A stretch of DNA of 57,794 bases from Anaerolineae bacterium (GTDB taxonomy: Bacteria; Chloroflexota; Anaerolineae; B4-G1; SLSP01). The notes beneath the pieces are model-generated. The model searched no databases. It was given only the letters and a program-made list of their open reading frames with translations, and had not been told where the DNA came from. Shown one piece after another: positions 3,733 through 38,769 of the stretch. A program made the translations under genes and the position numbers. Position 1 is the stretch's first letter. Each line of letters starts with the position of its first letter. The stretch covers positions 1 through 57,794 of the forward strand of contig JALXBP010000073.1 of NCBI GenBank assembly GCA_026991395.1, written 5' to 3'.

Positions 3733-3806
3733 TGCCGAGGCCCAGATTTGAACTGGGGACACAGGGATTTTCAGTCCCCTGCTCTACCGAACTGAGCTAC
3801 CTCGGC
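3733..3806 (-). tRNA. tRNA-Phe (GAA)
   Basis: The 74-nt cloverleaf is complete. The acceptor stem is GCCGAGG/CCTCGGC with discriminator A, the D arm is GCTC..GAGC, and the anticodon stem GGGGA/TCCCT surrounds the loop CTGAAAA with anticodon GAA. The T arm is CCCAG-TTCAAAT-CTGGG. The CCA end is not encoded (the genome reads CAAG after the discriminator), so it must be added by the CCA-adding enzyme. It lies 40 nt downstream of the GAF kinase gene and may be co-transcribed with it, since I see no separate promoter. Confidence 0.97.
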
Positions 3807-37999: not shown

Positions 38000-38027
38000 T
38001 TGACAGCCCCTGTCGGTGGAGTAGAAT
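38000..38027 (+). promoter_or_regulatory. Promoter of the ferredoxin gene
   Basis: A perfect TTGACA (38000-38005) and TAGAAT (38022-38027) with a 16-bp spacer; the leader is about 60 nt and ends in CAGGAGGCTAAGT. Confidence 0.75.
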
Positions 38028-38408: not shown

Positions 38409-38474
38409 CGTTAGGATAACGTCAGGAAAACGTCAGCTTGACGTCAAGCGAAGGAGCGGAAGCCGCGGTATCAT
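38409..38474 (+). promoter_or_regulatory. Activator-type promoter A: 11-bp-phased CGTCA repeats plus TATCAT
   Basis: CGTTA at 38409 and CGTCA at 38420, 38431 and 38442 are spaced exactly 11 bp apart, and a -10 TATCAT lies at 38469-38474. There is no acceptable -35 at normal spacing. Direct repeats phased on one helical turn and standing in for a -35 are typical of OmpR/PhoB-family activators (known example: PHO boxes), but the sequence here is different. Confidence 0.6.
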
Positions 38475-38480
38475 AGATGC

Positions 38481-38562
38481 GTGGGCACATGGAACGAGAG
38501 ACCAGCAGCGCAACAGTATCCTCCTTTGCACGACCGAGGGCCTGAAAAGGCTCTCGGTTCTG
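38481..38562 (+). ncRNA. Predicted small RNA A with anti-Shine-Dalgarno segment
   Basis: From the predicted start near 38481 the transcript is about 80 nt. It ends in an 11-bp hairpin (38533-38543 with 38548-38558, one G-U pair) closed by a GAAA tetraloop, followed by TTCTG. Just upstream, CCTCCTTT (38520-38527) is complementary to the AAGGAGG ribosome-binding sites used by many genes here. No coding frame with a ribosome-binding site fits. The T tract is weak, so the 3' end is less certain than for RNA B. Confidence 0.55.
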
Positions 38563-38576
38563 CATAGGTCTTGAAT

Positions 38577-38630
38577 CGTCAGGAAATCGTCAGATTGGCG
38601 TCAAGTATTCGATGAGCGACGGCGTATAAT
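38577..38630 (+). promoter_or_regulatory. Activator-type promoter B: 11-bp-phased CGTCA repeats plus TATAAT
   Basis: CGTCA occurs at 38577, 38588 and 38599, each exactly 11 bp apart. The intervening bases (AGGAAAT, GATTGG) closely match those of promoter A, and a perfect TATAAT lies at 38625-38630. The distance from the last repeat to the -10 is 26 bp against 27 bp in A. The promoter architecture is clearly duplicated. Confidence 0.65.
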
Positions 38631-38636
38631 AGAGAG

Positions 38637-38713
38637 CGTACAGGCCGCACTTGAGAATTCTCCTCCTTCTGTAGAGCCGAGGGCGTTGGGGACCGCCCTC
38701 GGCCTCTTTTTTA
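38637..38713 (+). ncRNA. Predicted small RNA B with anti-Shine-Dalgarno segment and strong terminator
   Basis: The predicted transcript is about 76 nt. CCTCCTT (38662-38668) lies just before a 10-bp perfect GC hairpin (38676-38685 with 38694-38703), which is followed by CTCTTTTTT. It is similar to RNA A in length, position of the CCUCCUU segment and the CCGAGGGC start of the hairpin, so the two look like paralogues. There is no coding frame. The RNA ends 30 nt before the promoter of the SufR-like gene. Confidence 0.65.
38676..38712 (+). terminator. Rho-independent terminator of small RNA B
   Basis: GCCGAGGGCG pairs with CGCCCTCGGC around an 8-nt loop; a tail containing six T residues follows. 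This is among the strongest terminators in the window, placed where no upstream gene needs one. Confidence 0.9.
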
Positions 38714-38741
38714 TCATCCCGCCCATTTTTAAGATATTCGT

Positions 38742-38769
38742 TTGACAATTCCATTGCCTCTTCTATAAT
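38742..38769 (+). promoter_or_regulatory. Consensus promoter of the SufR-like regulator
   Basis: A perfect TTGACA (38742-38747) and a perfect TATAAT (38764-38769) with a 16-bp spacer. A promoter this strong for a regulator gene suggests it is normally repressed, possibly by its own product. Confidence 0.8.

What the first reader, a model, noticed from the sequence alone, without database searches (positions are those of the whole stretch)
38409..38713. Two tandem paralogous small RNAs with anti-Shine-Dalgarno segments, driven by 11-bp-phased CGTCA repeat promoters
Seen directly: two units, each with three or four CGTCA-type direct repeats at exactly 11-bp steps, a -10 box 26-27 bp after the last repeat, a non-coding stretch of about 80 nt containing CCTCCTT, and a GC hairpin beginning CCGAGGGC. 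The second ends in a textbook terminator. Such an RNA could pair with AAGGAGG ribosome-binding sites and block translation of many mRNAs at once. Known parallels are C-rich iron-sparing RNAs such as FsrA and PhoB-type repeats phased on one helical turn, but this combination is not one I recognise. The position between a ferredoxin and a SufR-like gene suggests a role in Fe-S or redox economy (inference).
Basis: partly seen in the sequence, partly recalled or inferred. Interest (0 to 1): 0.85.

Follow-up and report, generated by a model that had tools for sequence, protein, structure and literature searches.

The report
Class-wide ribosome-site-mimicking small RNA family
The window holds two neighbouring small-RNA genes that belong to a previously undescribed family found throughout one class of Chloroflexota; each is switched on from a regulator-type repeat promoter and carries an altered copy of the ribosome's mRNA-docking sequence, so it probably shuts off translation of chosen genes, as similarly designed RNAs do in streptococci.

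Summary
The unit is three CGTMAG/CGTCAG/CGTCAAG repeats at 11-bp steps, 19-20 nt, TATAAT, a short variable leader, [GATT]CTCCTCCTT[CTG], and a covarying G+C hairpin. It recurs 1-4 times per genome in the window's family. RNA models find it in 43 of about 55 genomes of the class, but in only 4 of about 345 genomes of other classes of the phylum; the two of those 4 I could inspect lack the promoter. Most class-level RNA hits carry the same phased repeats upstream, although the model knew nothing of them. In 19 genomes of the family the operator is almost confined to these RNA genes. No Rfam family matches. Neighbours differ between genomes (rlmN/dnaX in many), so the iron-sulphur idea falls. Best reading: trans-acting anti-Shine-Dalgarno sRNAs switched on by an OmpR/PhoB-type response regulator. 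They work like streptococcal CiaR-dependent csRNAs and Listeria LhrC but are not members of those families. The RNA differs from the 16S tail at one base (UCUCCUCCUU versus UCACCUCCUU), so it should prefer AAGGAGGAGA leaders. In relatives these often precede nutrient-binding lipoproteins and amino-acid genes; that enrichment is weak. No transcript or regulator has been shown.

The parts
38409..38448 (+). Operator of unit 1: four 11-bp-phased repeats (CGTTA, CGTCA, CGTCA, CGTCAAG)
   Evidence: the three downstream repeats match the family operator CGTMAG-N5-CGTCAG-N5-CGTCAAG with 0 mismatches
38469..38474 (+). -10 box of unit 1 (TATCAT), 20 nt after the operator; no -35 hexamer
   Evidence: spacing 19-20 is the mode across the family
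38481..38563 (+). Predicted sRNA 1 (divergent paralogue), ends estimated
   Evidence: model R1 33 bits, R2 21.7 bits at 38507-38564
38520..38526 (+). Anti-Shine-Dalgarno segment of sRNA 1 (CCTCCTT)
   Evidence: predicted unpaired probability 0.59
38532..38559 (+). Hairpin of sRNA 1, no T run
   Evidence: z = -5.5
38577..38605 (+). Operator of unit 2: three 11-bp-phased repeats
38625..38630 (+). -10 box of unit 2 (TATAAT), 19 nt after the operator
38637..38712 (+). Predicted sRNA 2, ends estimated
   Evidence: R1 60 bits at 38650-38724, R2 39.6 bits at 38649-38709
38657..38672 (+). Conserved block AATTCTCCTCCTTCTG with the anti-SD core CTCCTCCTT
   Evidence: alignments A1 and A2; unpaired probability of the core 0.68
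38676..38703 (+). Terminator hairpin of sRNA 2, covarying in relatives
38707..38712 (+). T run of the terminator

Best explanation
Two paralogous members of a class-wide family of trans-acting small RNAs. An OmpR/PhoB-type response regulator, still unidentified, binds the 11-bp-phased repeats on one face of the DNA and activates a promoter that lacks a -35 box. The 75-85 nt RNA exposes UUCUCCUCCUU, which pairs with AAGGAGGAGA-type Shine-Dalgarno sequences and blocks ribosome binding. The G+C hairpin ends or protects the RNA. Shown here: conservation, operator geometry and near-exclusivity, hairpin covariation, lack of coding constraint, predicted pairing energies. Inferred: transcription, the kind of regulator, repression, and the likely targets (nutrient-binding lipoproteins, tRNA synthetases, amino-acid enzymes).
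For: About 40 units in the window's family and order share operator, spacing, -10, CTCCTCCTT and hairpin. The hairpin covaries: 6 of 10 pairs change on both sides; 0 of 500 shuffles reach the observed score. A model of the RNA part alone finds class members of which 30 of 40 inspected carry the operator within 4 mismatches, 18 of those 30 at exactly 20 nt from the -10; further hits gave 13 of 14. Phylum draw: 43 of about 55 class genomes against 4 of about 345 others. In 19 family genomes the two-repeat operator gives 26 hits, nearly all at this RNA, against 5 for the reversed control. No consistent reading frame. Pairing energies favour the sRNA over the 16S tail at AAGGAGGAGA (-17.9 against -11.8 kcal/mol) and the 16S tail at AAGGAGGUGA.
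Against: No RNA data. The motif was part of my extraction filter, so its invariance is somewhat overstated. The core is only moderately unpaired in predicted folds (mean 0.53 over 40 units). Many members, unit 1 included, lack a clear T run. The target enrichment is weak and partly hand-picked. The regulator was not identified.
Confidence: 0.75

Rival explanations
1. The RNA works on protein or ribosome rather than on mRNAs: as a mimic of the 16S 3' tail it titrates a factor that binds GAUCACCUCC (for example Era or S1), or G-rich loops titrate a GGA-binding protein.
For: The conserved block GAUUCUCCUCCUUCU resembles the 16S tail GAUCACCUCCUUUCU (my knowledge of 16S); in the window's family the terminator loop keeps UGGGAC.
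Against: The GAU and the UGGGAC loop are lost in the rest of the class (UCUUCUUCUCCUCCUU, loop GGCG), while the extended purine-complement stays.
Confidence: 0.12
2. The units are cis-acting leaders or attenuators of the downstream gene.
For: The second hairpin is a textbook terminator upstream of a regulator gene.
Against: Downstream genes differ between genomes and the SufR-like gene here has its own TTGACA-16-TATAAT promoter after the terminator.
Confidence: 0.05
3. A global translation brake: the RNA binds essentially every SD (AAGGAGG) without selectivity.
For: The 7-nt core pairs with any AAGGAGG; several copies per genome.
Against: The conserved flanks extend beyond the core and one base differs from the ribosomal anti-SD, which would favour a subset of SDs.
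Confidence: 0.12
4. Operator and RNA are conserved by common descent only and the CCUCCUU is fortuitous.
For: The RNA is small and C-rich stretches are common.
Against: The core is kept across many families of the class while leader, loop and stem letters change.
Confidence: 0.03

Closest known systems
CiaR-dependent csRNAs of streptococci (PMC3091779, PMC8186281)
   Same: Several similar about 90-nt sRNAs per genome; promoter made of hexamer-N5-hexamer direct repeats (11-bp step) bound by the response regulator CiaR upstream of a TATAAT box; unpaired stretch complementary to Shine-Dalgarno sequences; terminator hairpin; transporter targets such as brnQ.
   Different: Operator here is CGTMAG-N5-CGTCAG-N5-CGTCAAG, three or four repeats, 19-20 nt from the -10 instead of TTTAAG-N5-TTTAAG at 10 nt; different phylum; RNA homology to csRNAs was not tested directly; operator almost confined to the sRNA genes.
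LhrC1-5 of Listeria (PMC4132741, PMC5880928)
   Same: Multicopy, CU-rich, all copies need one two-component regulator (LisR); blocks the SD of oppA and other surface proteins.
   Different: Three UCCC-containing sites per RNA; no LisR consensus was known in that paper, and no CGTCA operator is described.
NmsRA/NmsRB of Neisseria, Rfam RF02877 (PMC5362039)
   Same: Tandem sibling sRNAs with UC-rich anti-SD segments that repress central metabolism.
   Different: Only 26 bits against a gathering score of 52 in one class member; stringent-response control.
FsrA / IsrR and cuckoo RNAs (C-rich sRNAs)
   Same: C-rich single-stranded segment that pairs with SDs.
   Different: Iron (Fur) control or CCUCCUCCC loops (own knowledge); no link to iron seen here.

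Membership tests
streptococcal csRNA | CiaR site TTTAAG-N5-TTTAAG, 10 nt upstream of the -10 | tested here: not met
   Same hexamer-N5-hexamer format but CGTMAG/CGTCAAG letters and 19-20 nt spacing
streptococcal csRNA | Unpaired region complementary to SD between stem-loops, terminator hairpin | tested here: met
   (prediction only; the 5' stem-loop is not uniform)
streptococcal csRNA | Dependence on CiaRH | not testable with these tools
   no expression data; class-wide orphan regulator at G000:C107 is only a candidate
Pho regulon (PhoB box) | 11-bp direct repeats of the TGTCA type | tested here: inconclusive
   11-bp steps and GTCA core present, but no PhoU in this genome nor in two others that carry the RNA
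LhrC | Three UCCC motifs per RNA | tested here: not met
   single CTCCTCCTT block per unit
NmsR (RF02877) | Covariance-model score above gathering | tested here: not met
   no hit in window; 26 of 52 bits in L101
Any Rfam 15 family | Match at gathering score | tested here: not met
   only a tRNA in the window; no family above its gathering score in six homologous loci
FsrA-type iron-sparing RNA | Iron (Fur) control and Fe-S enzyme targets | tested here: inconclusive
   operator is a phased direct repeat, Fur box not searched; candidate targets are transport and amino-acid genes

The most novel reading that the evidence does not exclude
The RNA is a second, one-base-altered anti-Shine-Dalgarno that sorts the cell's mRNAs by the base after AAGGAGG: A-type leaders (nutrient uptake, amino-acid supply, tRNA charging) are silenced on signal while U-type leaders (Hsp20, PspC-like and other stress genes), which fit the ribosome best, are spared, in one whole class of bacteria through a regulator devoted to this RNA.
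Probability: 0.2. Interest if true: 0.88.

Novelty: new variant of a known kind. Interest (0 to 1): 0.66.

Why it matters
I found no described trans-acting sRNA family for this class in Rfam or in the papers searched. This one is present in most genomes of the class, has a readable operator, and predicts its targets from a single base difference to the ribosome, so a regulatory circuit in a poorly studied phylum becomes testable. It would also be an independent origin of the csRNA/LhrC design (two-component regulator, multicopy anti-SD RNA, transporter targets).

Tried and rejected
Fe-S or redox role from neighbours: rejected, neighbours vary. Phosphate regulon: no PhoU here or in two other carriers. 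Coding gene: 18 of 40 units have some frame of 15 or more codons across the motif, with no common peptide or frame. Spread outside the class: the two inspected out-of-class hits lack operator and hairpin. A first scan for response regulators by pattern failed and was replaced by position. The SD-type target comparison is weak: 12 of 48 against 2 of 37 lipoproteins (p = 0.014) with partly hand-picked loci, 8 of 28 against 2 of 22 (p = 0.086) for tool-chosen loci; in genomes without a detected RNA 0 of 10 against 1 of 9.

Full report
OBSERVATION. Two units lie head to tail between a ferredoxin gene and a regulator gene with an ArsR/MarR-like N-terminal helix-turn-helix. The three-repeat array at up to 2 mismatches is found only here in the window (3 matches, 0.21 expected) and, at up to 1 mismatch, only here in the 2.46 Mb genome.

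CONSERVATION IN THE FAMILY. A search of 60 related genomes with the DNA found short, separate matches to the operator and to the anti-SD/hairpin part lying together in many genomes of the same family. Reading those loci gave about 40 units with one plan: CGTMAG-N5-CGTCAG-N5-CGTCAAG, 19-20 nt, TATAAT, a leader of variable length, GATTCTCCTCCTTCTG, and a hairpin AACCGGGGGC...UGGGAC...GCCCCCGGTT. The last repeat is the strictest (CGT in 41 of 41). The hairpin covaries: 6 of 10 pairs have changes on both sides, the covariation score is 0.320 against 0.176 in shuffles, and sliding the partner destroys it. Genomes carry one to several copies; tandem pairs also occur in other genera (L076, L077, L079, L098).

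CONSERVATION IN THE CLASS. A covariance model built on the RNA part only (R1) hit 176 of 396 class genomes at E <= 0.01. Of 40 hits read with flanks, 30 have the operator upstream within 4 mismatches, usually as CGTAGG-N5-CGTAGG-N5-CGTCMAG, and 18 of the 30 have exactly 20 nt to the -10. The operator was not in the model, so this is independent support. There the RNA reads UCUUCUUCUCCUCCUUUUG followed by hairpins of differing sequence. A second model (R2) over 400 genomes of the phylum hit 43 of about 55 class members and 4 of about 345 others. Of 14 further class units read, 13 carry the operator within 4 mismatches; the two out-of-class hits that could be inspected do not. That the class is Anaerolineae is inferred from the titles of records that encode relatives of the neighbouring regulator.

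A DEDICATED OPERATOR. In 19 family genomes the pattern GTMAGN5CGTCAAGYA gave 26 hits against 5 for the reversed control. Nearly all can be placed at an sRNA gene or, at one contig edge, at what looks like its promoter. The repeats have the format bound by OmpR/PhoB-family regulators: PhoB uses two 11-bp direct repeats (PMC3978041) and CiaR uses hexamer-N5-hexamer (PMC3091779). No -35 hexamer fits, so activation is likely (inference). Which regulator binds is open. One orphan response regulator is a reciprocal best hit across the three compared carriers (67-78% identity, G000:C107, L239), in the same gene order beside an FHA-type protein in the two loci read; it is a candidate only.

HOW IT PROBABLY WORKS. 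The 16S tail reads UCACCUCCUU (general knowledge, not read from this genome); the RNA reads UCUCCUCCUU. Predicted duplex energies: AAGGAGGAGA with the sRNA -17.9, with the 16S tail -11.8; AAGGAGGUGA with the sRNA -13.5, with the 16S tail -17.0 kcal/mol. Genes preceded by AAGGAGGAGA and an ATG in this family include binding lipoproteins for peptides, branched-chain and polar amino acids, glutamyl-, methionyl-, valyl- and threonyl-tRNA synthetases, LysW, a TrpB-like enzyme and chorismate mutase (the synthetases other than glutamyl are my reading of the N-termini). Genes preceded by AAGGAGGUGA include Hsp20- and PspC-like proteins, again by my reading. The lipoprotein bias is suggestive at best and is not seen in ten genomes without a detected RNA, where numbers are tiny. 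I therefore hold 'conserved sRNA gene' as near certain, 'two-component-type control' and 'SD blocking' as likely, and the target set as a hypothesis.

COMPARISON. By plan this is the csRNA/LhrC design: csRNAs are about 90 nt, multicopy, driven from hexamer-N5-hexamer repeats, with an unpaired anti-SD segment and transporter targets; LhrC1-5 need LisR and block oppA. Membership fails on operator sequence and spacing, and on the number of C-rich sites. Rfam has no matching family. So: it works like a csRNA and is a separate family.

LIMITS. No expression data, unnamed draft genomes, transcript ends estimated, the core motif was used in extraction, and the core is only moderately accessible in predicted folds.

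Noticed in passing
L356:985-1140 (also L357-L362): Conserved structured-RNA-like element [76 protein letters not shown] in the window's family, without an Rfam match (E <= 0.5). It contains a perfect complement of the sRNA core, so it could be a cis element or a sponge.
   Followed up: partly
L097:1588-1760: In a relative without a detected sRNA (G006) the same operator precedes a short unit with AAAGGAGGTGGTGACATAA (an SD, not an anti-SD) and a strong terminator.
   Followed up: partly
L239:1015-1782: Orphan OmpR-type response regulator, 67-78% identical across the compared genomes, beside a zinc-ribbon/FHA protein; candidate regulator of the sRNA.
   Followed up: partly
38000-38027 and 38742-38769: Near-perfect and perfect sigma-70 promoters before the ferredoxin and the SufR-like gene, so both neighbours have promoters of their own.
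   Followed up: yes
L071, L074, L079, L083 and similar units: In the window's family a 5' stem-loop with a GGGG loop and the terminator loop UGGGAC could pair with CCUCC of the same or another RNA molecule; meaning unknown.
   Followed up: no
3733-3806: tRNA gene on the minus strand (Rfam RF00005).
   Followed up: no
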